Below, piece after piece: positions 30,888-64,000 of a DNA stretch of 64,000 bases. Within the stretch, counting starts at the first letter, position 1. Each line of letters opens with the position of its first letter. The stretch spans positions 3,237,101 through 3,301,100 of the forward strand of contig CACVBU010000600.1 in NCBI GenBank assembly GCA_902728285.1, given 5' to 3'. The stretch is from Clytia hemisphaerica (lineage: Eukaryota; Cnidaria; Hydrozoa; Leptothecata; Clytiidae). Under the pieces are notes generated by a model, which made no database searches, had not been told where the DNA came from, and was given only the letters and a program-made list of their open reading frames with translations. The translations under genes and the position numbers were made by a program.

Positions 30888-32058
30888 GTAGTCATGTGCT
30901 ACCTAAATTGTGCAGACTACCGGGCTACCTTAATGGAGCGGCCCGTTTGTTTCTGCAAAACCTCAGAAAGATTACTGTAACATTGGCAAGTTAGTGTAGA
31001 AGCAATTTGTAGTCATGTGCTACCTAAATTGTGCAGACTACCGGGCTACCTTAACGGAGCGGCCCGTTTGTTTCTACAAAACCTCAGAAAGATTACTGTA
31101 ACATTGGCAAGTTAGTGCAGAAACAATTTGTAGTCATGTGCTACCTAAATTGTGCAGACTACCGGGCTACCTTAATGGAGCGGCCCGTTTGTTTCTACAA
31201 AACCTTAGAAAGATTACTGTAACATTGGCAAGTTAGTGCAGAAACAATTTGTAGTCATGTGCTACCTAAATTGTGCAGACTACCGGGCTACCTTAATGGA
31301 GCGGCCCGTTTGTTTCTACAAAACCTTAGGAAGATTACTGTAACATTGGCAAGTTAGTGCAGAAACAATTTGTAGTCATGTGCTACCTAAATTGTGCAGA
31401 CTACCGGGCTACCTTAATGGAGCGGCCCGTTTGTTTCTACAAAACCTTAGAAAGATTACTGTAACATTGGCAAGTTAGTGCAGAAACAATTTGTAGTCAT
31501 GTGCTACCTAAAATGTGCAGACTACCGGGCTACCTTAATGGAGCGGCCCGTTTGTTTCTACAAAAACAAAACCTTAGGAAGATTACTGTCATTGGCAAGT
31601 TAGTGCAGAAACAATTTGTAGTCATGTGCTACCTAAATTGTGCAGATTACCGGGCTACCTTAATGGAGCGGCCTGTTTGTTTCTACAAAACCTTGGAAAA
31701 ATTACTGTAACATTGGCAAGTTAGTGCAGAAACAATTTGTAGTCATGTGCTACCTAAATTGTGCAGACTACCGGGCTACCTTAATGGAGCGGCCCGTTTG
31801 TTTCTACAAAACTTTAGGAAGATTACTGTAACATTGGCAAGTTAGTGCAGAAACAATTTGTAGTCATGTGCTACCTAAATTGTGCAGACTACCGGGCTAC
31901 CTTAATGGAGCGGCCCGTTTGTTTCTACAAAACTTTAGGAAGATTACTGTAACATTGGCAAGTTAGTGCAGAAACAATTTGTAGTCATGTGCTACCTAAA
32001 TTGTGCAGACTATTACCTAAACCTGGCTACCTTAATGGAGCGGCCCGTTTGCTTCTGC
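30888..32058. repeat. 121-bp satellite array, about 9.6 copies
   Basis: Unit starts GTAGTCATGTGCTACC recur at 30888, 31009, 31130, 31251, 31372 and 31493, then after one indel-bearing unit at about 31618, 31739, 31860 and 31981. Units are over 95% alike by eye. Each contains CGGGC...GCCCG, a possible 5-bp stem. A unit of 121 is not a multiple of three and the frames break, so the array is not coding; the frame at 31501-31710 exists only because of an indel. Confidence 0.9.
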
Positions 32059-35405: not shown

Positions 35406-35794
35406 TGGCCGTGGTGTTCTCAAAGCTTTGAAAGTTGTTAATGTTAATAGAATTGATTGACGTGGTCTTGCACTCGATCATGTTGCATGGACAGGGTCGG
35501 CGAAACGGGGGGGGGGCCCTTTTTTGCTCAGAAAAAAAAACCAACCAACCATGGTGGCGCCTCCTTAGCCACTTACTATTTGGCCTCTCCACTTTCAAAA
35601 TTGATTCGCCGGCCCTGATGGAAAAATGTTGTTGACGGGTTACAGAGTTTATGAATTTTGAACCGTTTTTATAGACATATCTGTATTTCTTTTTTATTTG
35701 TCATAGCGCTGTGATTTCCTGGATTTTTATGTTCTAGCTTTGTCTAGGATGGTTAGTCTTCAGTCTTACTATCGAATTTATTTTTCCTATCGTC

Positions 35795-36125
35795 GGGACA
35801 CAAGAACACAGAGAACACAAGATTCAGCTTTACTATTTTAGAATTTATTTTTCCCATTGCAGTGGACACAAGAACACAGAGAACACAAGATTCAGTCTTA
35901 CTATTTTAGAATTTATCTTTCCTATTGCAGTGGACACAAGAACACAGAGAACACAAGATTCAGGTTTACTATTTTAGAATTTAATTTTCCCATCGTGGTG
36001 GACACAAGAACACAGAGAACACAAGATTCTGTCTTACTATTTTGAAATTTACTTTTCCCATTGCAGTGGACACAAGAACACAGAGAACACAAGATTCAGT
36101 CTTACTATTTTGAAATTTATTTTTC
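35795..36125. repeat. right-arm 68-bp tandem repeats (5 copies)
   Basis: GGACACAAGAACACAGAGAA starts at 35796, 35864, 35932, 36000 and 36068, an exact 68-bp period. Inverted relative to 29283-29462. Confidence 0.9.
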
Positions 36126-36261
36126 CCATAAAAAAATGACGAATCTAGGCTGAGAGTGTCAAGCCTGATGATGAAACTAGCCTATGAACATTTTTAGCCT
36201 GAATTACCAGTTCTTTATCAGCCAATCAGATTGCTTCTTTACTTACTTCACCTTAACCCGG

Positions 36262-37805: not shown

Positions 37806-39200
37806 AGAATAGTTTATACGGGTATATAATATGCCAAGTGTTTAGGAGTGTTAGGGTTTTTCGGAAAGATGAAATTTTTGCAAAAAAAGTGCTGACATCA
37901 ACAGAAACATCATTTTCAAGAGTCTCTCAATTTTTATTTTCTTTACTTCATGAGGAACCTCTGTGCTCTATCCCTATTTGAAGTAAACATGTGATAATCC
38001 GCCCACTATAAGAGCTAGGCAGCAACTAAAAATAAAGGCGATTTTTAAGGAATTACTATCCTCACTCTCATTATTGTCCTCGCAACCCTTAATCAACCAT
38101 CCACCGCAAGATTAGAGGATAGAGAGGGTAGCGAGGACAATAAGGATAGTGAGGACAATGAGGATAGTGAGGGCAATGAGGATAGTGAGGACAATGAGGG
38201 CAATGAGGATAGTGAGGACAATAAGGATTTTGGTACGAAACGAAATAGTACAAAAGGCTAATTAAAACCAACATGAAAATGTAATATTTCGTACTGAATA
38301 GTAAATAATCATTATCAAGATTAAAATTTTAAAATCATATATTGAAGGATTGAACACAATTTGCAAGAGCAATAGATTTTTTTCAAAAATTTTGGTTTTA
38401 AAACACTCTCTTGAGTCAGATATTTTAATCTCATTGTGAAATCTATCCAAAGTCTGTCATGCTCGATAATTGAAGGAGTTCAAACAAAATGCTTATTTTG
38501 AGTAGTGGAAGTTTGATTTGAGCGTCTCTCCTGAATTTTGGAGGTGGAAATAATAATAATAATAATAAGAATTATGAATTCCGGGTTTTGAACGAAACGC
38601 GAAATAATTTGAACGAAAAGCGGAATGATTGGAACGAAATGTCGGCTTGTCTATGGAATATGAACGAGATGTCGATAACTTTGAACGAATTGTCGACAAT
38701 TTTTGAACGAGATGTAAAAAGTTCATGAACGAATTGCATATTACCCAAAATGCACTGCTGTATTTGAACGTGAGTCTAAGTAGCGGCGGGCTAAAAGTGA
38801 AAGTTGAAGCTTTGGAGTTTGGAGCTGTGCATCATGAAATGCATGATTTTTGACTGCATATGGGACTTGGGAGCTGATGGTGTATGAATAAACTGGATGG
38901 ACATTGATATCATTGTAAGAAGATAAATGAAAGTATGCTGTCTTCTCTCTACTCAATAATGGTAAGGTTAGCAGGATTACCAGTGACCAGTGGAAACTTC
39001 TGAAACTTTCTTCAAGATTTATGGGTAAATTTGAATGGTGAGCGTATAAAACTGAGGCTCATCTATCATGCTATCTTTTTCCTTGTCTGGAGACACTAAG
39101 TCACAAAGTTTCCTAGTCTTTTAAGCTTCTTGACTTCTTGAAAAGTGATTTTATCACTGCATGTGGTTTTTAGCCCGGAAACCTGGCTCAGACAAACCAT
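37806..39200. other. non-coding region with minisatellites
   Basis: 38111-38228 is an 18/36-bp minisatellite of GAGGATAGTGAGGACAAT units. 38551-38568 is (AAT)n. 38580-38735 contains seven or so variants of TTTGAACGAAATGTCG. No gene supported; open frames on either strand follow the repeat phase. Confidence 0.55.
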
Positions 39201-47274: not shown

Positions 47275-49531
47275 AAACTCGAAACAAGAAGCTTACTCTA
47301 CCAGAAAAAATCAAACTAATTGAAGATGACAGATTTTTTGTTAAAAAAATAGATGATAAAATTGGTGAGTTTTAATAATTTATTTGAAAGAGGCTTTAAA
47401 CAAAAGTTTTCCTTCAAGAAATTTCATTGTAGGCAAATCTCTGTGTTGATTGCCTATAGAAAAGACCCTGTAATTTTTTACCAATTTTCCAGCATTCAAG
47501 GTTTCTGTGCAAAAATACGTCAAAATTAGTGTACTTTTTGAGGAGTTTGATTTTTGATAATATTTCATTGCAGGTTATGGTGTTTTTGCAAAACAGAAAT
47601 TTATGCGGAAAGATTTCTTATTGCAATATAAAGGTATATATATTTGAGTGCAATTTAGAATTATTTTTTTAATTTTTGTATCATGTTCTTAATGAATAAA
47701 GCTTTACCTCAATACTTACTTAATAGATTGATAGTGGTGAATATTTTTTGTTAGGAGACCTTGCTACTTCTTTTTTTTATGATTCTGATGAAAAAGTAGC
47801 ATGGTCTTACCAGTCAGTTTAAATTTCGGCAGTTGATAAAAAGAACCAATCAAAAAATTTTTGTATTTACTAAAACAAAATTTTGACACTTTTCTTGGCC
47901 AAGGAATATAGTAAAAAAGTCCAGCGGCGAATATTAATTTTTGGCATCCTGGTTGCAACTCAGCCACTATATCAAAATCAAAAAAGGTGGCTGATGTGTC
48001 TTAGCTAAAAAGCCATGCGAGGGCAATGAATTTTAAATGCATGGATTTCAATGACTAATCTAATCTAATCTAATCGAAGAAGGTTATGGTTTTGTTTTAT
48101 CATGTTTTTTTTTCTATCAGATTATCATGTTATCAATTCTTGATCAAATAGTTGTGACTTTTTAACCTTTAGCCACCGCTCTGTTTTTTAAAAATTATCC
48201 TTTTTTACACTTTAATTTTTCATGAATTTTGAAACTCAAAGCCAAATTGTGGTCACAGTGGTAAGACTCAGGCAATTCTTTTGGTACCATTGGAAAGTCT
48301 CAGCTTTCGAAAACAACCAGGGCATTTTGGCTGAAAACATAGTGGTTTTGAGCTATGGTCAAAAGACTGAGGGTCGTAAAATCTGTGTTCACCGTACGTC
48401 ATTCGGTGGCTAAAGGTTAATGATGTTCCAAATATTTGGCAGCCTAGGAAATTCAGATTTTTTTTAAGGCAATGCTTTGATGAGAAAACCATCAAATCTG
48501 ACTACCTCTCTCTGTTTAAATTTCCAAAACTTTTAAAACGTGTCTCACTTACTTTAAATTCAGGCGAAAATATATCACCAAAGGAAGCAGAGAGGCGAGC
48601 CTTGGACTACAAGCACAGAGGGATTGGTAATTTCATCTTTGACCAAATAAAAGATTGTCGTGATAAATGGATTTGGTAAAAATAATTTTTTTAAATATTA
48701 TGTCATCACATTAATTTCTGATTTTGTTCTTTTCAAAAGTTACTAATGAAATGTTTTTCATTTATAAAAGCACTGTAAGAAAAAATCGATACGGTTTTAT
48801 TTTGATTTTTAAGTATTGATGGAACAATGGAATCATCCTTTGGACGGTTAGTCAATGATTCACCTCAAGACTTTGCCAACAGTGTGATGAAAAGGGAAAA
48901 GATTGGCAATAGGGTTATCCTTTGCCTCTATGCTCTTAATGACATTGAAATTGGAACTGAGTTGAGGTACTGAGGGGTATTTTTCAATATGTCAATAATT
49001 TCAATTTAATGGCTGTTGATGGTGAAATCTGTGTTCCATTAATTTGGTTTTATAGGATTTTCTTAGTGTGATTTTAAGATTTTATTTATGTATACTGTAT
49101 TCTAAGAGTTCTGGTCAAAATTTATTGAGTTTATTCCGCCAAAAATCTCATTTGCAAATATTAATTCTCATAAAAAAAGTTCAAAATTCGCAAAGTCTTA
49201 TAACTCCAAGTTTTTTTATACTTAGTTTGGCAAAAGACCGTATAGACAGATTCATTTGACACCCTTTTTATGATTTATTGAAAGTTGACACATAATTTGT
49301 TTGATTCTGAAATTTCTTAACAAAGGTCCATTTGCAAAAAAATTTTATTCTTGCAAATTTTTCTAAGACATCTGTCCTAGTTGCTGACTTGTTTAGTTCT
49401 CCTATCATTTAAATTCTTGTTATCAATAGTCAAATGTTTTAAAGCAAAGAATTATCTTTTGTTGTAGATATGACTATAATTTTGGTTCCAGTCAGGTAGA
49501 TACCAACTCCATGCCATGGAGATTAAATTAT
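47275..49531 (+). CDS. SET domain exons (5)
   Basis: Exons 47275-47364, 47574-47633, 48564-48675, 48814-48966 and 49468-49531. Blocks in order: VKKIDDKIG/GYGVFAKQKF (the GxG cofactor loop), LLQYKG/GENISPKEAERR, DKWIC/IDGTMESSFGRLVNDSP, LCLYALNDIEIGTEL/RYDYNFG, and MPWRLNY. Order and spacing fit KMT5A, including DxT-x4-5-GRLxN and E-L-x-YDY. In canonical SET domains the Asn is followed by His (NHS); here it is Asp (NDS), and the residues after it are unusual. The catalytic Tyr of YDY is kept. Activity therefore cannot be assumed. Confidence 0.8.
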
Positions 49532-52500
49532 GTAAGTTTAAATTTTAATAAAAGATATTTTTCTTTTTTAAAAATATAGTACGACAGCAGCCCTGGCAAT
49601 TCAAATTTGTTTGCCTCGGCATTTTTTTGCCGAAGCAAAAGGTTAAATTTGCTATTTGCCTCCGCAGAATAGGATTCTGCCTCGGCAATTTTTACTCACG
49701 GAGAGGGGACATCTCTGCTTCAACAGTTATCTATTTTTCTTAGAAATTTTTGCCTCAACATTTTTTTGGCCGAGGCAAACACACTATAAACTAATTTGCC
49801 TCAGCTTTTACCTCGGCATTTGCCGTATGCCGACGCCAATTGCCAGGACTGGACAGGAGCAAAAATAATACAATTTTCGAATTGAAATTGCAACCTACTT
49901 GATTAGTCTGACCAAATTGTAAAATTAAAAAAGCTAATTTGCAAAGATTTACCAACTAGCATAATATGTGAAAAGCCCAGAAAAGCCATCTTTGAAGTCA
50001 AATATCTTCAAATCAGTACAGAATTTGGCCATACTTTATACTTGCTTAAAAGAGTTCTATTTACTTTTTTGGAGAGCTTACATGTGGTATAGATTATTTT
50101 TGTTAGAAATGGTTTTAAACGTTTTTTTAGCCTCTGAAAATGTTTTTCCTAAGAGCCTCAAGCCTCACTATGTTAATCTACATAAAATTTTGATATTGTC
50201 TAGTATATACCTTAAGTGGAGAAATTTTGGCGCAGATTTAATTTGGCGCACAGCGGATTTGAAATATTTGGCGCGGATTTAATTTGGCGCAGCAAGGATA
50301 TTTTTTAATTTGGTGCATACAAAAGTTTTTCAGACCTTAGCCAGTCATGCCAGCTGTCATGACAAGGCTGATAAGAAAAAGAATAACGGCAATATGACCA
50401 TTGACTAGATATTTCGTATTTTATTGATTTCGTTGGTAAAAGTTTAGAAAAAAACTTAATATTCGTTTAAAATTTACTTTTAGTAATAAAAAAAAACTTG
50501 GCGTGTATTTAATTTGGCGCAGCTTAAAAAAAACTTAAATTTGGCGGTTTTTGGTATTTTGCGTCAATTGCGCCAAATTTTTCTCTGCGCCAAAATTTCT
50601 CCACTTAAGGTAACCTAAGACCTAAGGCCTTAGAAAACAACCAAAGTGATTTGCACTGTTGCTCACTGAAGAAGAAAGGTGATCTTTGTTCCATGGGATA
50701 TGGCTACCTCGCACAAAAACCTTCTTTGAGTCAGTTTTGTAATTTTTTAAATTAATTAACTTAGCCCTGTATGGTAATTTACATAATTCTACAACTTCAA
50801 ATTTTCAAATGATTTTGATTCCACAGAAGAGTACACACAGAAACATTTGAAAATTTATATCAGTTGTCCACTTCAACTTTGGGAAATGTAAAAAAAGCAA
50901 GAAGTGTGTTTTGCAATGCTCTTACCAGGCAACCAGAAAAATAACTAATAAAGTGATTTTTAAAGAAAGATTGTGATTAAATTTCTTTTCACTTTTAGGA
51001 ACTCTATGCCGAGCCGAAGATGGAAAATACTCCATCCCTCACAAAAGAAACGGTAACAATTGTTTTAAAATCTGACTGGAACTCTCCATCCTGTTGGATC
51101 TCCATATCATTTTAAAAACTTAAAAGTAAATTGTGCATATACAATGCAATTACAGGTGAAGGTTGGATTCAAATGAATAAATTAAGTTCTCTATAATGTT
51201 CATAAGTTGAATTAAAATATTTTGTAGATTTCTTTATTTTTAGTATACCCTATAATTTAATAGTGATTCTTTATCTTCGTCAAGGAAACAAACACAGCCA
51301 CGGAAACCAATATACCATCAGTACAGCCAACTACATTGCAAGCTGATCAGGTACAAGAATATTTGTGATTATTATCTTCAAAAAGAAAATCTTAGTACTT
51401 CCAAGAACCAAAATATTTGGTATAGAGATCCTGTAATGTCCTGTACTGTAGGGTAATAATTAGAATTCAATTAATATAAACTTGAACAAGGGTCTTTAGT
51501 TCTTGGATAATGTAGTAAGATTTGACTAGTCTTTTATTATTATCGTTAGGTCATCTAATAAAGTTATTGTTCCAGATCTGCGGCCGGGTGAAAACTTTTT
51601 TACAAGTCAATCGGTCGGTTGGTCGGTGTTAAAAAGTATTTATTGGATTGTAAAAAGTCTGACAACCATGCTTAATTTCAACAAAAATCATATGTTTAAT
51701 TTGCTTGTTTCTAAAGATTGATTACATTACTAAAGAGACTGATTTAACTAGAGAAACTAAAATACGGCAATTGAGCTTGAATTTTACAAAAAAAAATATT
51801 GATCGCCTGGGTGGAAGAAATTTTTCTCACCTAATTTTCTACAGATGGCCTTATCCAGGTAAGTGCCCTAATTCTATGACTTCCAAATCAATAAGTATGT
51901 AATTATCTTCACTTAGGAAAATGCAATAACCAAAGTTCATTTTGATGTGGTTTATCGATTATCAAACAATACGATTAAGATTGAAGATGACAACCAAGAT
52001 GAAGAAAATGATATTGTGCCACCTACCCCACTTAAAAAGGTACATATGAGACAAAAGGCTCTCCATATAATTTCCCCAATGTTCACTCTAGCAAAGACTC
52101 ACCTAAGAATTTAAGTCCTCGCTAAACCATATTCCCACCTGGAATCCAATAGCTTTTAAAATCCCATCTGAAGACAGATTATCTAACTTAGCAATTCCCT
52201 CACCACCAATGTATTGTTTTTAGAATGAAGTGTATAAAGAAAGCATCATTCAATCAAGTTTAAGGTAGGCAAAATTAATTATAAGATGATACTGCAAAAC
52301 CATTCATGAAACAACTTGTGTGTCGTTTTTCGCTAGTTCGGACTCTTGCCAAAGATATAGAAGAGGGTTATGCAACTCATTATATGCAAACCTGGAATAA
52401 TAATATGTTCGAATGAGTTGATAAGGAATAGATTAATGTTATAATTCATTCATTTATTTATTTCGTTTAGTGAAAGCAGCGCACAATTGACTTTAACCAA

Positions 52501-55500
52501 CAGCTCACCTCCAAGGTATACAAAGTTGAAAAGACAAGTCATTTCAAACAAGCGAAGCTGAGTCTATTGGCTTCAAGTGCTTTACACCCTCTGTTTGGGA
52601 TAATGAGCTTTTTATATCTGAGAGACATGCACGCTAACTTTATTCTTATAAAGTAGAAGTATGTAACAATGAAAACTTTTCAGGTTTTTTATTTGTCTCT
52701 ATTGCTGTAATGATGAACACTTATTTGGATTATAATATTGTTCTTTACTCAGGATACTGACAAAAGATGTCATGAGAAATCAAATCGTCAGCTGTGAAGA
52801 CATAGTCAAAGCTGCGATTAAACAACCAGACTACAAGTAAATATTTTATGTTGATATACACAATTTTTGATACCATAAACAAACTAATTTTGGCAGATTT
52901 TCCAAATTAAGTTCCCGCCAGATTTAATATTTTCCGCCATTTTATGGTTAAAATTTTCAGCAATTACCAAATTAAATTCATGCCGAAACTAGTTCCTTTA
53001 AGTGATATACCTTATTAAGGGAAGGGAATTTTGCGGGAAGAAATTTTTGCGGCATTTAATTTTGCGGTTTAGACCTTGCAAATTAAATATTTCGCGGAAA
53101 TTAATTTTACGGTTGAGGGCATTTTTAGTCCAAATTATAACCTAATTTGGCCTAAAAGTGCCAATTTTAGGAGTAAAATTTCAAAATTCAAGATTCAATG
53201 TGTTTCGCAGAATTTAATTTCACGGTTGTCACCGGGAAAATTAAATGCCGCAAAAATTTCTTCCCTTAAGGTACCCTAGCTTCTATAAGAGTATTCGGGT
53301 TAAAATTGCCCAAATTGTGAGAATTATTATATTCCCAGGAGAATTTTTATCAACCACAAAACTAATATATTTATTGATATGCAATAACTTTGAATTCGAA
53401 AATGAGAATGCGATGGCTGGAACACAATACTGTAGTATAAAATAATATCAACTTGAAATACTACCACATTCTTCTTTTAGGTTCAACATGTCCCCAATTA
53501 CAATAGAAGATTATTTTCAAAATGCAAGTACATCCATGACAATGAAGAAATATTTTCGAAATCCAAGTACATTTCCAAAAGCATCAAGGTTTTTATTCAT
53601 GATTTAATATTACAGTTTCTTAGTCTGAACCACTTTTTTTGAGGGGATTATTTCCATAACTTATGTAAAATATTGAGACACTTTTGTACACAATCAGTTA
53701 TTTCCTGGTATTTTTGTCAATCATGATTCTTGTTTTTACATACTCTTAGGTTCCAAATAAACGGGGGGGGGGGTTGGAAAATTTTCTAGATTTTAATAAA
53801 CGGGGGACCTAATTGCCGGGGGGGGTTGGAAATTGTACTTCTGAAACCCCAAAATAAGGTAAAAATAGGTTAAAACTATGCTATTTAAAGCAAAATAAGG
53901 GACCTTCTCTTTGACAGCTGAAAATATTCTTCGAGATTAATAAACGGGGGTCCTAATAAGGTCCAGGGGGGTTGTTTAAAAAAAAATTAACAAGCGGGGG
54001 GGGGCCGTTTATTTGGAACCTAAGAGTAAGCGTGATAAAACATAACTACATATTAAAGAACATTATGAAGTAGGAAAAATAATTTATTTTCTCAGTTATC
54101 TCATATCAAATGGACTTGCTCTCGTAAGAAAAAAAAGATTTACAAAGGTATTATATTTTTTCAGAAATTATTTGCAATTTTGATGAGATTTTGTAGCAAC
54201 TTTATACGCTAATTTTGCTTAGACAGATCAAGTTTAAGGCGTAATTATTTTGTAAACTGATGTCACAGAAAGGCTTTGTTTTGTTCTGTTTTTTTTCTTT
54301 TCTATTTATCAATTTTTGTTGATGCTTATTATTTTTCAGGAAGATTTGAAAACAGATGAAGAAAATTACGAAGAGGTATTTTTCTCTTTTCAACACACCT
54401 TTTTGTAAATTTTGTGATTACTTTTAAATTAATGTATTTTTATTGATTTTAGCTTTTTATTGAATTTAGCTTTTTATTGAATTTTTTGTAGATCAATTTT
54501 TATATGACTGATGATGACTGTCGGAGTGAAGAAAGAAAGTTTCCGATCGATATTGGTTCGTCAAAAAATGGACTTTTTGATCAGGTAGCAGGTTTAATTG
54601 TTAAGATATCATAGCTTCAAGTGTTTTTTTAAAATGAACTAATAGATATTGATAAATTAAAAGCTATATCCTCACACCTCATTCCCATATTTCCCATATT
54701 TTATTCACGTGTGTAAGTATAAGTGTAACTGACACATTCAGCTCACCTTAAAAACTCTTATAGAAGTTCCATTTATCCCTAAACCAAAAATGGGTACTAT
54801 TTTTACATTAAATGCATCAATTTTAGATGTCGACTTCGAAAACTGGTCAGTGTAAAAACTGGTATGCTTAAGTTAGTAAAAATGTTGACATCAATAATTT
54901 GTTAATCGTTATTTTCTTTTTTTCAGAATGATTTTTGCATTGGAATAGACAAAGAACTTGACGAAGAGGTTTGTTTTCATGAAAGGTTTCACACTGTTTC
55001 ACTTTTCACATTTAGAGATATTTAAGTACTGTCATAGTGTCCTCCCCCCCTTTATAAAGGGGGGGGATTCTGATTTTGGCCCTTTTTTTAAAGTATGGGG
55101 GAAAATGAAAAATTTGAAATTTGCTGGGGGAAAATAAAGAGGGGGGAAAACCATAAATTTAGGAGATTTTGACTGGGGGAACTTCACTGATCTCAAGGTG
55201 ATCTTGTTGCAAAACCTGTTTAAGCAATAAAATCAGCAAATCTTTTGGGATAAACTAACTTTTCAATACAATTTCATTTTTCCAGCACTTTCAAGGCTTT
55301 TTTTTCAAGCTTTCCAAAATTTCAAATTTGATTTTATGTTAACCATATGGGGAACCGCAAAATCTTCAAATAGCTGGGGGAATTCAAAAAAGAGGGGGGA
55401 ACCGAAAAATTTTGAAATATGGTGGGGGAAATAAAAGAGGGGGGAATGGAGAAAAATTTTGATTTTTAGTGGGGGGAACCAACCCAGGAGGACACTATGA

Positions 55501-58500
55501 CAGTACTTTCACTGTAACTTGTTCAAAAATAAGTTTAAAAAACCGTATCGGTACTGATCAGTAGATGCATAGCTAAGAAATTTAACAACGAGATATAATA
55601 TTTTTCTAGGATGAGCTTGAATTGATCCATGCAGAGAGGAGTGAAGAATCTTCAAGTGAATCAGAACATGATACAAGTCAACCTCAGTCACCATCGCAGT
55701 AAGTTAATTTTCATGGCGTCCTCCAGCTTTTTGGTCCCCCCTAATATGAGCTAAAATCCCCCATCTGGCCTTTCCCCCCCACCTGTCTTTAAAATTCGTG
55801 CTCCCCCCCCTAATTGGGAAATCCCCCTAGCCGTATTGTATAAGGGTTGCGAAGTGATGATCCAGACTCGCCTCAATTCGCAAGCTACTATAGCAAAAAA
55901 AAGACTCTCAAAATCCCAAGAAAGACAGGCTCATAAGCCTGAATGCCCAAACACACCAGGAAGGTCTGTATTTATCCTATTACTCCCCCCACTAGGTAGA
56001 GGACTGAATATACCCCCTATTCGCCTTTCTCCCCCCATCAAGCTTGAAATTTTCACTTCCCCCCTGGCACCAAAATCTGATTCCCCCCCCATCTTCCTGG
56101 GGGGGGGATGATCCCATGATTTTTGCAATTATTGATGTAAACAGGGGGGGGGCACGCAGTTACTACAAGACAGTATGACACTTACTATCGTGGTGGTACT
56201 GTATTCAGAAGTTATGAAAACAGTTACTACACAGTGTAGTAATGCTGTTTGGGGGTGGTGCCAAACACTAAAACTAGCACTTTTGGTGTAGTAAGTGCTT
56301 ATATTTTAATTCTTTTCAAAGACTTTTCAAAATTTTTCATAAAAAATGAATTTTTTCAATTTTTTGTGAAAAAATTCTTTGTTAAGAAAAATATTTTTGT
56401 TATAAATGGACGAAAAAAAATTTGAAATTTTTCTCAGACCCAACTTTGAAATTATGTTTTCCTTAATCATCATTAAAATGTTCTCAACAGCTGTTAACCA
56501 AGTAAACTAAAAGAAAATCTAGCACAAAAATGGCTTAAGGTTGAAAAATAATCGCAATTTTAGGGTAATTTTGAGCATGTTTTTGATGATATCACTCAAA
56601 AACAGGGGTTGTACCTGGAAATCTTTTCTGAAAACAGTTACTACCAAGGTGTAGTAACTACAAAGGGTGGTGGTCCTGAAAAAAAAATGTTGAAAAAACA
56701 CTTATTACACATCATGTCTTGTAGTAACTGCGTGCCCCCCCCCTGATGTAAAGAATAATTGTTGCGGAATCAACAACGTCCAAATCAAATTATTCGGTTT
56801 CAGATGTTTACCACAGACTTTTAAACTTTTTTGTGGTGCAACCTATTTTTTGTTGTTTTTGTAACTTGTATCATGATCATATTGCTTCTGATTTCATCTC
56901 ATAAAATAGAGTGAAAAAATAAATATTGAAATTTTTTTTTATTTGCAGTGACATGCAATTATCAACAGAATGCCGTAGAAATCAAGTCATCTCAACTCAC
57001 AAAATCATACAAGAGGTATGTTTTCATTAACTCCCATATTGTCTTGTTAAGTTTGTTGTTTGTTCAGTGCAGACCAGCTTTTTGCTAGCCTTATATCGAT
57101 ATCTCGTTTGGTGGGTAATGTTTACTGCCTATAAGCATGTGAATTATTTTATTGATTTTTTATATTCTTATGTCATTGATTTGATGGAACCAGAATGTTG
57201 TTGATTAAATACCATATATTTTGGCGTTAACAGACAGACTTTGATTGCGGTTTCTTCATTACCATGTAGAAAACCATATTTAGAAATGTAACATATCAGT
57301 TCAAAACTTTTCTAGGGTGAGTGGGAAATGATTATTCCAAATGAGATGAGTGAATACACAGAATCTTCGAGTGAATCAGAATATGTTTCTTCACCATCAC
57401 AGTAAGTTAATTTTCTCCCCTCCTTTAGTTTTAGTTTAGATCGCAAGGTCGCATAAATCCCCCCACCCCCAGATTTCCAAACTTTCAGTGATGTTTATTC
57501 AACTACACAAAGTCTATTCGTGCCAAATCCGTGAGTATTTAAATACCTCTAAAAATTTGAACGAATGTCGATTGACTAATGAGTTAGAAGCTGTGGTAAT
57601 ATTATTATGGTTGCTAAGTATGCAAATTAAGTTGTAAGCGTTCATTGAAGACTACTTCCACTTCTGAATTCATCAAGATGCTTTTTGAACGAAATGTCGT
57701 TTTTTCTATTTTCAGTGACGTTCATTTAACTAGACAAAATCTACTCGTGCCAAATCCGTGGTCTTTAATCCTCTAAAAATTTGAACGAAATGTCGATTGA
57801 TTGATGAATTAGAAGATCGGGTAATATAATTATGGTTGCCAGTATGCATTAGCTGTAATCGTTCATTGAAGACTACTTCCACTTCTGAATTCACAAACGC
57901 TTTTTTGGCACGAGTAGTTGTGTGTAGTTTAATCAGTTAATGAACGTCACTGAAAATAGAAAAAACGACATTTCGTTCAAAAAGCGTTTGATGAATTCAG
58001 AAGTGGAAGTAGACTTCAATGAACGGTTTCAGCTTAATTTGCATTCTTCGCAACCATAATATTACCACAGCTTCCTAACTCGTTAATCAATCGATATTTC
58101 GTTCAAATTTTTAGAGTTATTGAAAGACTCACGGATTTAGCACGAGTAGATTTTGTGTAGTTAAACGAACGTCACCGAGAATAGAGAAAACGACATTTCG
58201 TTCAAAAAGCATTTGATAAATTCAGAAGTGGAAGTAGTTTTCAATGAAGAGTCAGCTTATTTGCATACTTAGCAACCATACTTGATTACCACAACTTCAT
58301 TGCAGTTCATTGAAGACTACTTCCCCTTCTGAATTCACCAAACGCTTTTTGAACGAAATGTCGTTTTTTCTATTATCAGTGACGTTCAGTTATCTACAGA
58401 AAATGAACTCGTGCCGAATCCGTGAATAAAAGTTTAAAAAAGTATTTTTAAAAATCCTCTTAAAATCTGAACGAAATGTCGATTGAATGATGAGTTAGAA

Positions 58501-61500
58501 GTTGTGGTAATATAATTCTGGTTGCTAAGTATGCAAATTAAGCTGTAATCGTTCATTGAAGACTACTTCCACTTCTGAATTCATCAAATGCTTTTTGAAC
58601 GAAATTTCGTTTTTTCTATTATCAGTGACGTTCAGTTATCTACAGAAAATGAACTCGTGCCTAATCCGTGAATAAAAGTTTAAAAAAGTATTTTTAAAAA
58701 TCATCTTAAAATCTGAACGAAATGTCGATTGATTGATGAGTTAGAAGTTGTGGTAATATAATTCTGGTTGCTAAGTATGCAAATTAAGCTGTAATCGTTC
58801 ATTGAAGACTACTTCCACTTCTGAATTCACCAAACGCTTTTGGAACGAATGTCGTTTTTTTCTATTACAGTGACGTTCAGTAATCAGAAAATGAACTCGT
58901 GCCTAATCCGTGAAATAAAATTTTAAAAAGTATTTTTAAAATCATCTTAAAATCTGAACGAAATGTCGATTGATTGATGAGTTAGGAAGTTGTGGTAATA
59001 TAATTATTTGCAAAGTATGCACAAATAGCTTAATCGTTCATTGAAGATACTTCCACTTCTGAATTCACCAAACGCTTTTTTGGCACGAGTAGATTGTGTG
59101 TAGTTAAATCAGGTTAAATGAACGTCACTGAAAATAGAAAAAACGACATTTCGTTCAAAAAGCATTTGATGAATTCAGAAGAGGAAGTAGTCTTCAATGA
59201 ACGCTTACAACTTAATTTGCGTACTTAGCAACCATAACAATATTACCACAACTTCATTGCAGTTCATTGAAGACTACTTCCACTTCTGAATTCACCAAAC
59301 GCTTTTTGAACGAAATGTCGTTTTTTCTATTATCAGTGACGTTCAGTTATCTACAGAAAATGAACTCGTGCCGAATCCGTGAATAAAAGTTTAAAAAAGT
59401 ATTTTTAAAAATCCTCTTAAAATCTGAACGAAATGTCGATTGATTGATGAGTTAGAAGTTGTGGTAATATAATTCTGGTTGCTAAGTATGCAAATTAAGC
59501 TGTAATCGTTCATTGAAGACTACTTCCACTTCTGAATTCATCAAATGCTTTTTGAACGAAATGTCGTTTTTTCTATTTTCATGACGTTCATTTACTACAG
59601 AAAATGAACTCGTGCCAAATCCGTGAATAAAGTTTAAAAATATTTTTAAAATCATCTTAAAATCTGAACAAAATGTCGATTGATTGATGAGTTAGGAAGT
59701 TGTGGTAATATAATTATGGTTGCTAAGTATGCAAATTAAGCTGTAATCGTTCATTGAAGACTACTTCCACTTCTGAATTCACCAAACGCTTTTTTGGCAC
59801 GAGTAGATTGTGTGTAGTTAAATCAGGTTAAATGAACGTCACTGAAAATAGAAAAAACGACATTTCGTTCAAAAAGCATTTGATGAATTCAGAAGAGGAA
59901 GTAGTCTTCAATGGACGATTACAGCTTAATTTGCATTCTTCGCAACCATAATATTACCACAGCTTCCTAGCTCGTTCAGATTTTTAGAGGTATTGAAAGA
60001 CTCACCGATTTAGCACGAGTAGATTTTGTGTAGTTAAATGAACGTCACCGAGAATGGAGAAAACGACATTTCGTTCAAAAAGCATCTGATCAATTCAGAA
60101 GTGGAAGTAGTCTTCAATGAACGCTTACAACTTAATTTGCGTACTTAGCAACCATAACAATATTACCACAACTTCATTGCAGTTCATTGAAGACTACTTC
60201 CACTTTAAATACCCCTTAAAGATTTGAACGAAATGTCGATTGATTAATTAGTTAGGAAGCTGTGGTAATATTATTATGGTTGCTAAGTATGCAAATTAGG
60301 CTGTAATCGTCCATTGAAGACTACTTCCTCTTCTGAATTAATCAAATGCTTTTTGAACGAAATGTCGTTTTTTTCTATTTTAAGTGACGTTCGTTTAACT
60401 ACACAAAATCTACTCGTGTCAAATCCGTGAGTCTTTAAATAACTCTAAAAATTTGAACGAAATGTCGATTGATTGATGAATTAGAAGCTGTGGTAATATA
60501 ATTATGGTTGCTAAGTATGCAAATTAAGCTGTAATCGTTCATTGAAGACTACTTCCACTTCTGAATTCACCAAACGCTTTTTGAACGAAATGTCTTTTTT
60601 TCTATTTTCAGTGACGTTCAGTTATCTACAGAAAATGACGTTCAGTTATCTACAGAAAATGAACTCGTGCCAAATCCGTGAGTAAAAATTTGAAAAGTAT
60701 TTTTTTAAATCCTCTTAAAATCTAAACGAAATGTCGATTGATTGATGAGTTAGAAGTTGTGGTAATATAATTCTGGTTGCTAAGTATGCAAATAAAGCTG
60801 AAACCGTTCATTGAAGACTACTTCCACTTCTGAATTCACCAAACGCTTTTTGAACGAAATGTCGTTTTTTCTATTTTCAGTGACGTTCAGTTATCTACAG
60901 AAATGACGTTCAGTTATCTACAGAAAATGACGTTCAGTTATCTACAGAAAATGAACTCGTGCCAAATCCGTGAGTAAAAGTTTGAAAAGTATTTTTTTAA
61001 ATCCTCTTAAAATCTGAACGAAATGTCGATTGATTGATGAGTTAGAAGTTGTGGTAATATAATTCTGGTTGCTAAGTATGCAAATAAAGCTGAAACCGTT
61101 CATTGAAGACTACTTCCACTTCTGAATTCACCAAACGCTTTTTGAACGAAATGTCGTTTTTTTCTATTTTCAGTGACGTTCAGTTACCTACAGAAAATGA
61201 ACTCGTGCCAAATCCGTGAGTAAAAGTTTTACTATTTCATATTCCTAGGTTAAAATAGTGCCCGAAACGATCTGAATAGGATAACCTTGGCCATAAATTC
61301 TTGGCAAAATATCATAGCTAACAAAATCTTTTTTGATCATGTAAAAACTTTATAAAGTCGTATTGGAATCATAAGCAACGTTTTCAAGCAGAGGCTTGAT
61401 TTGTCTTCCTATAACCATTATCGTTGAAAATCAGCAGTTTCGAGCTTCTCCCAGTATCTATGCGTAAGATGTGGGTCATACAATTACGTTGTTGCAACTC

Positions 61501-64000
61501 ACTAACATCTTTCACATAATATATTGCACAGAGTCCAATTGCATTAGATTCTAACGTTCGAGTACTTTCTTTTGTGAAGAAGTTACACTTGAGAGATTCG
61601 TTAACTTGAGTCATAAACAGTGGCGTTTGTACTTCGACCTATACTTCGGAGGAAAATGGGAAAATTGCCGATTTTGTGCCCCCAAACTATCAAAAATGAG
61701 TACAGTAGAAATTAGGCGAGGGAAGCGAGCGCGAAAATTTTTCGATATTCCCCCTTTTAAGCCAAACACTGCTATCTTTGAGGCACAAGAAGGAATGGGG
61801 TGCCAATTAGTGTTTTAAAATGCTTTTGGAACCCATTTTCGGGTCCCAATAAAACCAAAATTTTTCGATATTTCTCCTTTTTAAGTCATCTTCGAGGTAC
61901 AAGAAGGAATGGGGCGCCAATTAGTGTTTTAAAATGCTTTTGGAACCCCTTTTCTGGGCCCACTAAAACCACCGCTGGAATGCCACCATGCTTCTGATCA
62001 TAAAGCTGATTGCATACTGAGAGAGGACTTAAAATGACCTTAGTTGTATAATGGAAGTGTTCGACATTCAGGGTCATCATACTCAATATGTTTGAGGCTT
62101 TTTTAAAACATGAGCAAATGCGAGCGAAGCGAGCACCAAATTTTTCTATCAAGATGGATAGTGGAGAGCCAATTATAATGATATTGAAATGCGAGCGAAG
62201 CGAACACGAAATTTTAACCAGACGAGTACAAAAATACAACCACCTATAAATCATTTTGCATATTTATAAAAACTTTTTAAAACCTAGAAATCAGAAACAT
62301 ATTATATCTTCTGAGAATGAGAATTTTCGGAAAGACGATCCTTAAGAACTGCGATTATTGGTCGTGCTTCTCTATTGGAAGTGCGAAAAAATAGATTTTT
62401 GTTTGGCTGCATATGTTTAAGATTAATTGACGCGAGCGAAGCGAGCTAAAAATTAATATAGAGCTTAAATTTGACCAAAAAGTAAAATGGCACCTTGAAG
62501 AGAAAGAGGGAGAATTACATGCTAAAGGGCAATTACTTCAAAAAACTTCAAAAACTTCCTTCTTTTGACATTCTACCCCATGCCGCCACGCTACTGTTAT
62601 TCAGTTTCATTTTGATAAAGTATAAAATCAAATACTTGATAATATAGAAACTACTTAAAGGATAAGTGTTGAATCTACATGCGATGGTGGAGGAAACAAT
62701 TCTTCTTCTTCGCTTCTCTCACTCTTATCTTCGAGGGCCAACCATGGTTTGGCCCGAGGAAATTTTTTTTTGAAAGTTAGAGCACTAGATTGCCTTGAAC
62801 AGCACTTAGAAAAATTAAAAAAGGATTCCAATGGCTATTTTCCGTCACCGACAGGGAAAAAAATTCCGAAATATCGTCAATTATTTTGTGCTATTCCGCA
62901 GTAACGTTTAAATTTTACCCAAAATTCTGTCACCGGTACTGAAAGAAATTCCGTCATACCGTCTAATTTTTTGTAAAATTCCGTCACTCCGGAAGAAAAA
63001 GTGGTCGATTCCGCTCCTCCGCCAACCGTGAACCCCCCCTTTATGTACGTTGTATTGAGGAGATCTTGTTTGGCTTGCGATAGGTTCCAATTTTGGCAGG
63101 GATAAGTGAGCCTGCTGCGTACTTAGTGAATAAGGAATTTGATTCGTGTCTTGAACCTTTTTAAGTGGGGTATTGTCGATTGAGATAATGAATTTTAGGT
63201 ATTCATTATCAAAGATCATTGTTCCTGTTTTACCATTGTTTATGTTCAACCTCAAACCGCGTATAACTAGATGACATCATCATGAATTTCAGAGTATATA
63301 ATGGAAGTGCCACAAACTACGAAACTTATTATAGGTATACCGTCGTTCCCTTTAAAGTATATTTTTTTTATTTTTGCAGTCGCCGAAGTAAGAAGAAATG
63401 TCCGGAATGCCAACACCCATTCGCTGACCTCCCAAAACATTTAAGGAATGAGCATGGTTGGTCACGGACGAGCTCCATCAGTGCTGTGGGCATGTTTGGA
63501 ATGAGAAAAAGGAAAGAAAAGAAAACGGCTACGAAATACAAACACTATACAAAAATCTGTCCATTTCCCGATTGTAAGGGCACCAACAAAAACCCCGGTG
63601 AACACTTGCGAGGCAAAAAACATGGGTTCAAAAAAAGTGATGAGAACTACAAACGAATGATCAAGTTGTTCCAAAATTATGACCCGGCTATTCAGGAAAA
63701 TAATTACAAATATGGTTCGCCGATGAAATCTGCCGGTATTGTTTTGAAGAAAAAAACAATCAAAGCCACTCGGGCTAATGATAACATTGTAGTATTGGAG
63801 GACGATGGTTCCGATGCCGATGGTTCCGATGACGAATCTTACCGAAATTGCCTAGAAGATATCCCTGAAGTGCAAGACGAAGACGAAGACGAATACGAAG
63901 AAAAGAACGACAAAGAACAAATACTAGACGAGGAATTGTATTCTGATGAGTCGTCTGATGAAAATCGCGATGATTCTCTACATCAGTTGATAACACTTTT
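47275..64000 (+). CDS. SET-domain (KMT5A-like) + cassette repeat + C2H2 gene, partial at both ends
   Basis: A plus-strand gene chained from 19 constant exons (47275-57401), an array of cassette micro-exons (57489-61215) and a large last visible exon from 63380. All constant exons have AG/GT borders and matching phases. Visible coding is about 490 codons before the array, up to 120 within it, and 207 after. The SET domain is KMT5A (PR-Set7)-like by its GYGVFA, GENIS, CIDGT, GRLVN and ELRYDYN blocks; the enzyme class methylates lysines, classically H4K20. The linker is Ser/Glu-rich and probably disordered. The C-terminal exon has two C2H2-type fingers and an acidic tail. I recall KMT5A-like proteins with C2H2 fingers in fish and cnidarians. 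The start codon was not found and the end lies outside the window. Confidence 0.75.
48162..48420. mobile_element. MITE with TTAACCTTTAGCCACCG termini
   Basis: The left TTAACCTTTAGCCACCG and right CGGTGGCTAAAGGTTAA are inverted. The flanking TTAA could be the target duplication, as in piggyBac- or Kolobok-type elements. It lies in a SET-gene intron; the two overlapping open frames inside are not genes. Confidence 0.8.
49589..49852. mobile_element. MITE with CCTGGCAATT termini
   Basis: GCCCTGGCAATT and AATTGCCAGGACTG are inverted ends. The interior repeats TGCCTCGGCA and TGCCGAGGCAAA in both directions. It lies in the intron after the last SET exon. Confidence 0.75.
50208..50612. mobile_element. 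MITE with TACCTTAAGTGGAGAAATTT termini
   Basis: The left TACCTTAAGTGGAGAAATTT and right AAATTTCTCCACTTAAGGTA are inverted. The interior is dominated by ATTTGGCGCA words. A divergent member of the CTTAAGG family. Confidence 0.85.
50999..57401 (+). CDS. linker exons between SET and cassette array (14)
   Basis: Exons 50999-51052, 51285-51350, 51917-52039, 52224-52264, 52471-52515, 52753-52836, 53481-53588, 54096-54147, 54340-54375, 54492-54584, 54927-54968, 55610-55698, 56949-57015 and 57316-57401. All phases agree. The protein is Glu/Asp/Ser/Thr-rich with short helical pieces (ILTKDVMRNQIVSCEDIVKA, PITIEDYFQNAS, MKKYFRNPSTFPKAS). Exons 55610 and 57316 share ESSSESE and PS-H endings, and 56949 begins DMQLSTE like the micro-exons. 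Many exons end in GAG or AAG before GT. Introns are packed with MITEs. Confidence 0.65.
53008..53273. mobile_element. MITE with TACCTT..TTAAGGGAA termini
   Basis: The left TTAAGGGAAGGGAATTTTGC and right TTTCTTCCCTTAAGGTA ends are inverted; TTAATTTTGCGG and CCGCAAAAATTTC words line the arms. It lies in the intron between the 52753 and 53481 exons. Confidence 0.75.
53741..54028. mobile_element. poly-G MITE, copy 3
   Basis: TACTCTTAGGTTCCAAATAA and TTATTTGGAACCTAAGAGTA are exact inverted termini. Interior G-runs of up to 11 with TTGGAAAAT and AATAAACGGGGG. It lies in an intron of the SET gene. Confidence 0.9.
55027..55505. mobile_element. MITE with TACTGTCATAGTGTCC termini
   Basis: TACTGTCATAGTGTCCTCC at the left and GGAGGACACTATGACAGTA at the right are inverted. 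The interior contains GGGGGAAAAT and GGGGGGAA runs. It lies in the intron before exon 55610. Confidence 0.9.
55712..56118. mobile_element. MITE with CATGGxxTCxTCC termini, poly-C rich
   Basis: The left CATGGCGTCCTCC and the right end (reverse complement CATGGGATCATCC) are imperfect inverted repeats. The interior has eight or more C-runs and one G-run near the right end. Starts 14 bp after exon 55610-55698. Confidence 0.6.
56142..56745. mobile_element. MITE with CAGGGGGGGGGCACGCAGTT termini
   Basis: CAGGGGGGGGGCACGCAGTT and AACTGCGTGCCCCCCCCCTG are exact inverted ends, followed inside by ACTACAAGACA and its complement. The direct repeat ATGTAAA flanks both sides (56135-56141 and 56746-56752), a 7- or 8-bp target duplication. 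Confidence 0.9.
57480..61230. repeat. ~245-bp repeat array carrying the micro-exons, both orientations
   Basis: Each unit holds the micro-exon, then TTTGAACGAAATGTCGATTG, GTTAGAAGTTGTGGTAATAT, GGTTGCTAAGTATGCAAATT, TCATTGAAGACTACTTCCAC and GAACGAAATGTCG before the next acceptor. Inverted units lie at about 57900-58260, 59085-59260 and 59795-60200. Three inverted exons (near 57930, 59115 and 59825) are cut at GTGCC with the donor missing; two others (near 58160 and 60030) have the acceptor AG changed. Confidence 0.85.
57489..61215 (+). CDS. tandem array of 42-nt cassette micro-exons
   Basis: Sense copies start, after a TTTTCTATTTTCAG-like acceptor, at 57489, 57716, 58380, 58626, 58871, 59337, 59581, 60385, 60612, 60881 and 61174, about 227-293 bp apart. 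A standard copy is 42 nt, enters after 2 nt and leaves 2 nt before a GTGAGT/GTGAAT donor, so any number can be spliced in without changing frame. The encoded 14-mer is (x)DVQLSTENELVPN or a DVxLTTQNLLVPN variant. Eight copies are open (57489, 57716, 58380, 58626, 59337, 60385, 60612, 61174). 58871 has an in-frame stop, 59581 has lost its AG, and 60881 is frame-shifted. The upstream exon 57401 (…PS-CA) and downstream exon 63380 (T-CGC) both fit the phase. Splicing is inferred, not shown. Confidence 0.65.
61216..63379. other. intron between cassettes and zinc-finger exon
   Basis: No coding exon found. 61740-61975 holds two ~120-bp copies sharing CCAATTAGTGTTTTAAAATG and CTTTTGGAACCC. GCGAGCGAAGCGAGC-type words occur at about 61715, 62120, 62190 and 62432. 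62850-63050 has dispersed ATTCCGTCA/ACCG words and a C-run, resembling the 25937-26182 MITE. Open frames here lack support. Confidence 0.5.
63380..64000 (+). CDS. C2H2 zinc-finger and acidic-tail exon (continues past window)
   Basis: It starts after TTTTTGCAG; the first T completes a codon opened by either exon 57401 or any micro-exon. RRSKKKCPECQHPFADLPKH then LRNEHGW gives C-x2-C ... H-x4-H; a second finger is CPFPDCKGTNKNPGEHLRGK then KHG. Between them is a basic stretch (GMRKRKEKKTATKYK), a likely nuclear signal or nucleic-acid contact. After residue ~130 it turns strongly acidic (DGSDADGSDDES, DEDEDEYEEKND, DESSDENRDD). Open to the last base of the window. The minus-strand open frames here are shadows. 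Confidence 0.8.

What the first reader, a model, noticed from the sequence alone, without database searches (positions are those of the whole stretch)
57489..61215. A SET-methyltransferase gene with a tandem array of frame-neutral micro-exons
Seen: eleven sense copies of a short exon, each with its own acceptor, eight still open with AG/GT, all multiples of three and of the same 2-2 phase as the flanking constant exons. Any subset yields a continuous protein, so inclusion could tune the length of a (DVQLSTENELVPN) repeat between the SET and zinc-finger parts. Cassette amplification on this scale by an intron-plus-exon repeat is unusual. Inference: it arose from the constant exon at 56949 (DMQLSTE).
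Basis: partly seen in the sequence, partly recalled or inferred. Interest (0 to 1): 0.9.

Follow-up and report, generated by a model that had tools for sequence, protein, structure and literature searches.

The report
Jellyfish gene with repeated mini-exons
A jellyfish gene carries a row of near-identical, frame-neutral mini-exons, and two public protein models contain only the last three or four of them, so this looks like a real way of lengthening a protein linker rather than junk DNA.

Summary
The window is Clytia hemisphaerica (hydrozoan) DNA. Between constant exons 57316-57401 and 63380 lie 11 sense and 5 antisense copies of one short exon unit. In the window 8 of 11 sense copies are open, 3n and AG-GT; in a second genomic copy (contig C256) it is 10 of 11, and 0 of 5 antisense copies are usable in either. 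Public protein P0011 of this locus is reproduced (574 of 577 residues tested) by joining 57401 to copies 14, 15, 16 and then 63380. P0001, from C256, joins copies 13-16 in frame. So SET exons, micro-exons and zinc-finger exon share one model, and only the copies nearest the zinc finger are used. A paralogue (C566) has its own array in the same place: 11 copies of a different 72-nt exon plus a 63-nt one, all 12 open, phase 2-2. GAACGAAATG flanks most array exons in both genes and none of 20 constant exons. Amino acids vary among copies; frame and splice sites persist. Tandem amplification of a symmetric exon is known (schistosome SmPoMuc); new are the gene type, recurrence, inverted copies and motif. 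Regulated length tuning is unproven; no RNA reads were seen.

The parts
47275..49531 (+). SET-domain exons 47275-47364, 47574-47633, 48564-48675, 48814-48966, 49468-49531
   Evidence: exons and translation; Pfam SET E 2.5e-12; nearest solved structures KMT5A/SETD8, E 5e-11; all present in public model P0011
50999..55698 (+). linker exons 50999-51052, 51285-51350, 51917-52039, 52224-52264, 52471-52515, 52753-52836, 53481-53588, 54096-54147, 54340-54375, 54492-54584, 54927-54968, 55610-55698
   Evidence: reconstruction of P0011 from its fourth residue on
56949..57015 (+). constant exon DMQLSTE..., phase 2-0, proposed parent of the micro-exon
57316..57401 (+). constant exon, phase 0-2, duplicate of 55610-55698; splices to copy 14 in P0011; its counterpart in C256 splices to copy 13 in P0001
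57489..57530 (+). micro-exon copy 1 (42 nt, open, AG/GTGAGT, DVYSTTQSLFVPN)
57716..57757 (+). micro-exon copy 2 (42 nt, open; donor GTGGTC here, GTGAGT in C256)
57900..57982 (-). antisense copy 3 (frame lost, no GT)
58127..58207 (-). antisense copy 4 (acceptor AG lost)
58380..58421 (+). micro-exon copy 5 (42 nt, open, donor GTGAAT)
58626..58667 (+). micro-exon copy 6 (42 nt, open, donor GTGAAT)
58871..58909 (+). micro-exon copy 7 (39 nt, stop; 42 nt and open in C256)
59075..59160 (-). antisense copy 8 (frame lost, no GT)
59337..59378 (+). micro-exon copy 9 (42 nt, open, donor GTGAAT)
59582..59622 (+). micro-exon copy 10 (41 nt, no AG; 42 nt and also without AG in C256)
59788..59874 (-). antisense copy 11 (frame lost, no GT)
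60000..60080 (-). antisense copy 12 (acceptor AG lost)
60385..60426 (+). micro-exon copy 13 (42 nt, open, GTGAGT); counterpart used in P0001, absent from P0011
60612..60677 (+). micro-exon copy 14 (66 nt, internal 24-nt duplication); in both models
60881..60969 (+). micro-exon copy 15 (89 nt here, 90 nt in C256); in both models, frame-breaking in P0011
61174..61215 (+). micro-exon copy 16 (42 nt, open, GTGAGT); in both models
63380..64000 (+). zinc-finger / tyrosine-recombinase-like exon; continues to about 65037 beyond the window; frame broken twice in this contig, 601-aa open frame in C256

Best explanation
This is a real, expressed tandem array of symmetric (phase 2-2, 3n) cassette micro-exons in a Clytia hemisphaerica gene coding for a KMT5A-like SET domain, a long acidic linker, zinc fingers and a tyrosine-recombinase-like domain. 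The exon arose from, or beside, an exon-pair duplication (55610+56949 to 57316+micro-exon). It was then amplified as an intron-plus-exon unit, partly with inversion, in an intron placed between two phase-2 boundaries, so every gain or loss of a 3n copy keeps the frame. The copies nearest the zinc-finger exon (13-16) are spliced in and add 14 aa each (22 and 30 aa for the internally duplicated ones) to a sequence-tolerant linker. Earlier copies are mostly skipped because of weak donors (GTGAAT) or a lost acceptor, and perhaps because inverted copies pair with them. Shown: sequence, frames, copy number in two genomic copies, junctions in two protein models, a second array in a paralogue, flanking motifs. 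Inferred: RNA support for the models, the reasons for skipping, and that linker length is mostly tolerated rather than tuned.
For: P0011 (sources ncbi and uniref; Clytia hemisphaerica; uniref name 'isoform X2'; contig length 3470762 = this contig) is reproduced from its fourth residue to its last from window exons including copies 14-15-16. It keeps frame-breaking copy 15, which an ab initio predictor would be expected to avoid, so transcript evidence is likely (inference). P0001 equals C256 with copies 13-16 in frame over its first 682 of 831 residues; the rest lies in later exons not included in that check. Sense copies 10 of 11 usable in C256, antisense 0 of 5, hypergeometric P 0.0014. Paralogue C566: 12 of 12 array exons open, 3n, AG/GTGAGT. 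Exact GAACGAAATG within 60 nt upstream / 110 nt downstream: 8 / 7 of 11 window copies, 10 / 9 of 11 C256 copies, 7 / 11 of 12 C566 exons, 0 / 0 of 20 constant exons of the window gene. Ten of 14 codons vary among the 11 C256 copies, nine of them with amino-acid changes, fitting a tolerant linker.
Against: No RNA reads were available. The junctions rest on protein models whose evidence was not visible, and P0001's source is not shown by the tool. The antisense copies fall into two related classes, so the sense/antisense contrast is not 16 independent trials, and the sense copies are recent relatives of each other. The window's gene is not clearly intact: copy 15 and two places in the recombinase-like exon shift frame, and P0011 ends out of frame. 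The C256 copy has no SET exons next to it: its match stops inside exon 50999-51052, with none in the next 8 kb nor in a tile 30-38 kb away. No SET match was found in 19 kb of the C566 paralogue. So no copy intact from SET to recombinase was seen. The C65 paralogue has a similar array without a clear exon.
Confidence: 0.72

Rival explanations
1. Regulated tuning: inclusion of 0 to about 10 copies is controlled by cell type or stage, so that linker length between the SET part and the DNA-binding part is an adjustable parameter.
For: Symmetric exons; different copy sets in two models; record name 'isoform X2'; a motif near array exons and not near the gene's constant exons. A SET protein of Magallana gigas has annotated isoforms X2 and X4 that differ by exactly one 20-aa repeat between SET and zinc finger, and X8 and X6 by 10 aa in the linker (gene ids were cut off in the listing and the five sequences show two residue types at several positions, so they may come from two loci).
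Against: No expression data. Only copies 13-16 are used in the two models, which come from two genomic copies. Amino acids vary freely among copies. Another linker of the family, in the C267 paralogue, expands by repeats inside one exon (L042 5059-5175), which splicing cannot tune.
Confidence: 0.2
2. Neutral satellite: the intron became a tandem satellite that happens to contain an exon; the extra copies are ignored by the spliceosome and the models' use of 13-16 is noise.
For: A related paralogue (C65, L044) has a large tandem array with a similar motif in the same intron and no coherent 3n exon visible by reading. Some window copies are broken. Antisense copies show rearrangement.
Against: Two models use the same 3-4 adjacent copies. 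23 of 23 sense exons in the two other arrays (11 in C256, 12 in C566) keep a 3n length and an open frame, and 22 of 23 both splice sites.
Confidence: 0.15
3. RNA-structure gating: inverted copies fold onto earlier sense copies and hide them, leaving copies 14-16 (and variably 13) for splicing.
For: MFE folding of the C256 array at spans of 800, 1500 and unlimited pairs copies 1, 2, 6, 10 and 13 with antisense copies; all five antisense copies lie upstream of copy 13.
Against: MFE of 4.3 kb is unreliable. Copies 5, 7 and 9 have no antisense partner at those spans yet are unused; their donors (GTGAAT) explain that more simply. At span 400 the paired set is different (5, 7, 13). Copy 14 pairs partly with antisense 11 but is used, and without a span limit copy 16 pairs with antisense 8. 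The search of the C566 array found no antisense copies.
Confidence: 0.12
4. Assembly artefact: the array is a misassembly of a simpler locus.
For: The window contig shows an excess of single-base gaps in the array (16 against 2).
Against: C256 has the same 11 + 5 copies in the same order. C566 has an array of the same design with a different exon.
Confidence: 0.03

Closest known systems
SmPoMuc polymorphic mucins of Schistosoma mansoni (PMC2576457, passages read)
   Same: A short symmetric exon (27 bp) amplified together with its flanking introns in tandem, up to about 20 copies; paralogous gene groups with different exon types; variable repeat numbers in transcripts; complementary sequences noted in introns of the repeats.
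   Different: Mucins of a parasite, units about 1 kb separated by microsatellites, copy number differing between genes. Here: 42-nt exon, units about 240 bp, five inverted copies, a SET / zinc-finger / recombinase-like gene, the same copy number in both genomic copies examined, only 3-4 copies in the models seen.
Schistosome micro-exon genes (MEG) and S. mansoni gene 10-3 with tandemly repeated exons (PMC10526429 and PMC4015677, passages read; the 1988 paper known only by its title in a reference list)
   Same: Short exons, mostly multiples of three; symmetric so that they can be left out without frame change; tandemly repeated exons in 10-3.
   Different: MEG proteins appear mostly secreted and micro-exons make up to 75% of coding sequence; here micro-exons are a small part of a multi-domain gene, and secretion was not examined.
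Tandem exon duplications with mutually exclusive choice (PMC9013439, abstract and results section read)
   Same: Tandemly duplicated exons in one intron.
   Different: Here several copies are in one model, so it is not one-and-only-one choice.
SET proteins of Acropora millepora (P0013, P0014) and Magallana gigas (P0015-P0019)
   Same: Homologous SET domain, then a tandem-repeat linker, then zinc-finger-like motifs by eye.
   Different: Profile comparison of these proteins with the Clytia zinc-finger/recombinase family was not significant, so membership in one family is unproven; whether their repeats are separate exons could not be tested.
Crypton tyrosine-recombinase elements and their domesticated DUF3504 genes (PMC3212892, passages read)
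   Same: Recombinase-derived domain joined to zinc fingers in animal genes.
   Different: No DUF3504-named match in Pfam (a renamed model was not checked); no methyltransferase mentioned in the paper's text search; mobility of the Clytia family not tested.

Membership tests
Tandem symmetric micro-exon array (SmPoMuc type) | exon plus flanking intron amplified in tandem | tested here: met
   11 sense copies with similar flanking introns; 11 copies of the 72-nt exon in C566
Tandem symmetric micro-exon array (SmPoMuc type) | exon length multiple of three, same phase both sides | tested here: met
   8 of 11 open, 3n and AG/GT in the window; 11 of 11 3n and open in C256; 12 of 12 in C566
Tandem symmetric micro-exon array (SmPoMuc type) | repeats present in mature transcripts in variable number | tested here: inconclusive
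   protein models with 3 and 4 copies, from two genomic copies; no RNA reads
Schistosome MEG family | micro-exons make most of the coding sequence | tested here: not met
   in P0011, 66+89+42 = 197 nt against 577 codons
Schistosome MEG family | secreted product with signal peptide | not tested
   no signal-peptide tool was run
Mutually exclusive exon cluster | one and only one copy per mRNA | tested here: not met
   three or four copies per protein model
SET-domain lysine methyltransferase, KMT5A-like | SET domain by profile and sequence | tested here: met
   PF00856 47.6 bits over cutoff 22.4; best PDB matches KMT5A/SETD8
SET-domain lysine methyltransferase, KMT5A-like | methyltransferase activity and substrate | not testable with these tools
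   needs an assay
Tyrosine recombinase | conserved R, K, H/R, H, Y set | tested here: inconclusive
   columns R516, K546 invariant and H625, R627, H651, Y660 nearly invariant in 10 sequences, some of them partial; the assignment to catalytic positions is recalled and the H-R spacing differs from the usual one
Tyrosine recombinase | recognised integrase domain | tested here: inconclusive
   P0001 no hit at 0.01; its C256 exon 14.9 bits, below the cutoff 22.3; relative P0009 passes the Phage_int_SAM_1 cutoff, 25.0 over 22.3; no PDB hit by profile; structure prediction never ran
Crypton-derived DUF3504 genes | DUF3504 domain | tested here: inconclusive
   no match under that name for P0001 or the C256 exon; the present Pfam name of the model was not checked

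The most novel reading that the evidence does not exclude
In this gene family the birth of cassette-exon arrays is a recurrent, motif-driven process. A short intronic sequence, GAACGAAATG, placed about 24-30 nt before and 25-50 nt after a phase-2 exon, both defines the micro-exon for splicing and marks the unit that is duplicated. Different paralogues have thus grown arrays of 11 or 12 copies of different exons in the same intron, and inverted copies act as built-in silencers that decide which copies are used. Linker length between a SET enzyme and a recombinase-like DNA-binding module would then be an evolvable dial.
Probability: 0.15. Interest if true: 0.85.

Novelty: new variant of a known kind. 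Interest (0 to 1): 0.58.

Why it matters
The precedents found here for tandem amplification of symmetric micro-exons are schistosome genes for mucins and apparently secreted proteins. Finding the same design in a SET / zinc-finger / recombinase-like gene of a free-living jellyfish, and in two paralogues with different exon sequences, makes the question of how exon arrays are born testable: is it selection on a variable protein, or a property of the intron? Clytia is a laboratory species (recalled), so isoform counts and minigene tests are feasible. It also warns that gene models in such loci depend on which copies an annotator picks.

Tried and rejected
Considered and rejected: dispersed transposable element as carrier of the exon (the array query matched only this locus and C256 among 16 matches; a lower bound by the tool's own words). 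Strong purifying selection on the peptide (10 of 14 codons vary among the 11 C256 copies, 9 of the 10 with amino-acid changes; last 42 nt of copies 14 and 15 used). The C65 array as a third exon array (no coherent 3n exon seen by reading). Assigning the Acropora and Magallana proteins to the Clytia recombinase family (not significant). C256 as a plain allele: its similarity stops inside exon 50999-51052 and does not resume in the tiles fetched, so it is called a second genomic copy (allele with large insertion, or partial duplicate). Literature: the nine searches listed no paper recognisable from title or abstract start as dealing with this Clytia gene or with a SET plus tyrosine-recombinase fusion; only the listed rows were seen, apart from the papers named above.

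Led nowhere: RNA folding as sole explanation of skipping (a first run hit the time limit). Structure prediction of the recombinase-like domain was never accepted. Genome-wide search for the unit, the motif and the SET part did not complete; of the genome-search runs only 7 and 19 were.


Full report
WHAT WAS CHECKED. The window lies at G000:C419:3237101-3301100 of a 417-Mb, 951-contig assembly. Clytia hemisphaerica proteins P0006 and P0008 match loci of this assembly at 100% over 436 and 226 aligned residues (L021, L019), and Clytia protein P0011 sits on a contig of the same length as C419, 3470762. The window is therefore Clytia hemisphaerica.

THE ARRAY. A search with one unit (nhmmer) finds 11 sense and 5 antisense copies between 57479 and 61228, and the same 11 + 5 in the same order in a second genomic copy on contig C256. 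In C256 all 11 are 3n and open, and 10 have AG/GT (copy 10 lacks AG). None of the 5 antisense copies is usable in either contig: three have lost frame and donor, two have no AG. If usable copies fell on strands at random, 0 of 5 antisense given 10 of 16 usable has probability 0.0014, but the antisense copies form only two related classes. Two sense copies carry internal 24-nt tandem duplications, both in frame in C256 (66 and 90 nt).

ASSEMBLY QUALITY. Between the two genomic copies substitutions are 0.24-0.42% in the stretches just outside the array and in the recombinase-like exon, 1.0% further downstream, and 2.7% inside the array. Single-base gaps in the array are 16 missing from the window copy against 2 missing from C256. 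The broken copies in the window, and the two frame breaks in the recombinase-like exon, may be consensus errors; this cannot be decided here.

THE GENE. Exons 47275-49531 give a SET domain (PF00856, E 2.5e-12) nearest to KMT5A/SETD8 among solved structures. Exons to 57401 give an acidic linker. Exon 63380 to about 65037 gives zinc-finger-like motifs and a domain whose columns R, K, H, R, H, Y are invariant or nearly so in 10 sequences; reading them as the tyrosine-recombinase set is recalled knowledge. Pfam supports this only weakly (relative P0009 passes the Phage_int_SAM_1 cutoff; the C256 exon does not) and no solved structure matches by profile. A paralogue on C267 (L042) has a weak SET match (E 0.005), a 16-residue linker match (E 0.84) and the zinc finger (E 2e-10) in the same order on the same strand. 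No SET match was found in 19 kb of C566 or 9 kb of C65 (only a short linker match, E 0.023, in C566), so the SET fusion is not shown for those paralogues.

DIRECT SUPPORT FOR SPLICING. P0011 (577 aa, uniref name 'isoform X2') is reproduced from its fourth residue to its end by 57316-57401 to copy 14 (60612-60677), copy 15 (60881-60969), copy 16 (61174-61215) and 63380. Because copy 15 is 89 nt here, the model leaves frame and ends early; a predictor working from coding potential alone would be expected to skip it, so transcript alignments probably forced it (inference). P0001 (831 aa; source not shown; it matches C256, though its record's contig length is 1963754 against 1961360) joins copies 13, 14, 15 and 16 in frame to the zinc finger; the join reproduces its first 682 residues, the remainder lying in later exons not included in that check. 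P0001 has no SET part, and in C256 the match to the window stops inside exon 50999-51052, with no further match in the next 8 kb or in a tile 30-38 kb away. No fully intact SET-to-recombinase copy was seen.

WHY THE LAST COPIES. Copies 5, 6 and 9 have donor GTGAAT, as does copy 7 in C256; 13-16 have GTGAGT; copy 10 has no acceptor. Copies 1 and (in C256) 2 have both sites and GTGAGT and are nevertheless absent from the models. All inverted copies lie upstream of copy 13. MFE folding of the C256 array pairs copies 1, 2, 6, 10 and 13 with inverted copies at spans of 800 or more, but a different set (5, 7, 13) at 400; copy 14 pairs in part, and copy 16 pairs with antisense 8 without a span limit. 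This is a hypothesis only.

SELECTION. The differences between the two exon classes (DVQLSTENELVPN and DVHLTTQNLLVPN) change amino acids (read). Ten of 14 codons vary among the 11 C256 copies and nine of these ten include amino-acid changes; among the 8 C566 copies compared, 7 codons vary, 5 with amino-acid changes. What persists is length, frame and splice sites, as expected for a tolerant linker. No formal test of selection was made.

A SECOND ARRAY. In the C566 paralogue (L043 + L045) the region before the zinc-finger exon holds 11 copies of a different 72-nt exon (8 near the zinc finger, 3 about 7 kb upstream) and one 63-nt exon, 12 of 12 open, 3n, AG/GTGAGT, phase 2-2. The motif GAACGAAATG lies within 60 nt upstream / 110 nt downstream of 8 / 7 of 11 window copies, 10 / 9 of 11 C256 copies, 7 / 11 of 12 C566 exons and 0 / 0 of 20 constant exons, mostly at -24 to -30 and +25 to +50. 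In one search it occurs once elsewhere in the window (38632), not in the flanking tiles L009-L012, L014, L015, not in L042 nor in 16 other paralogue loci of about 3 kb, but also in the C65 and C22 paralogues. C65 has a tandem array with the motif and no clear exon, a case against exon function as the cause of amplification. L042 has no comparable array and no motif, but a 39-aa linker exon with internal 18-nt repeats.

ORIGIN. Exon 57316 is a clear duplicate of 55610 including the donor (0 of 2000 shuffles). The micro-exon matches exon 56949 at 18 of 22 bases from the acceptor on (3 of 2000), though one unrelated place in the window scores equally; the unit search hits 56933-56972 at E 0.044.

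RELATIVES. SET proteins of Acropora millepora (two loci) and Magallana gigas have tandem repeats between SET and zinc-finger-like motifs. Magallana isoforms X2 and X4 differ by exactly one 20-aa unit; that they share a gene is not verified. The two Acropora proteins, from different loci, differ by 119 residues in the repeat region. These proteins could not be tied to the Clytia recombinase family. Hydractinia protein P0012 has SET and a recombinase part similar to P0001 (E 3e-7, single comparison, 21% identity) in the opposite order.

KNOWN KIND. SmPoMuc genes of Schistosoma mansoni repeat a 27-bp exon with its introns up to about 20 times (PMC2576457 passages), and MEG exons are symmetric (PMC4015677 passages). 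The mechanism is therefore known in kind; the gene, the inverted copies, the recurrence in paralogues with different exons and the flanking motif are the new part.

VERDICT. The cassette-exon reading is supported by protein models; tuning is unproven.

Noticed in passing
window 14067-21593: Head-to-tail duplication of about 3.77 kb at 98.5% identity (14067-17834 and 17835-21593), exactly adjacent; either a recent tandem duplication or two haplotypes joined by the assembler.
   Followed up: partly
window 35759-36129: A 68-bp tandem repeat, 5.5 copies, several carrying a pyrimidine-rich tract and CAG followed by a 28-nt stretch, acceptor-like without a donor; not a clear exon.
   Followed up: partly
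window 30887-32012: 121-bp tandem repeat, 9.3 copies, 96% matches.
   Followed up: no
window 38580-38720: Run of degenerate TTTGAACGAAA-like repeats that also read as LNE-x repeats; the only GAACGAAATG of the window outside the array lies here (38632).
   Followed up: no
L044 1188-4255 (C65): Long 80/160-bp tandem arrays upstream of a paralogous zinc-finger exon, with TTTGAACGAATTG and GAACGAAATG motifs but no clear exon.
   Followed up: partly
L045 7047-7359 (C566): 21-bp tandem repeat, about 15 copies, upstream in the paralogue that carries the 72-nt exon array.
   Followed up: no
window 7759-10160 (- strand) and 27110-28060 (- strand): Long open frames: the first (7762-9084) with weak P-loop NTPase matches below the Pfam cut-offs, the others without a convincing Pfam match.
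   Followed up: partly
C256 about 1101740: In the second genomic copy foreign sequence begins inside the exon that corresponds to 50999-51052, cutting off the SET part.
   Followed up: partly
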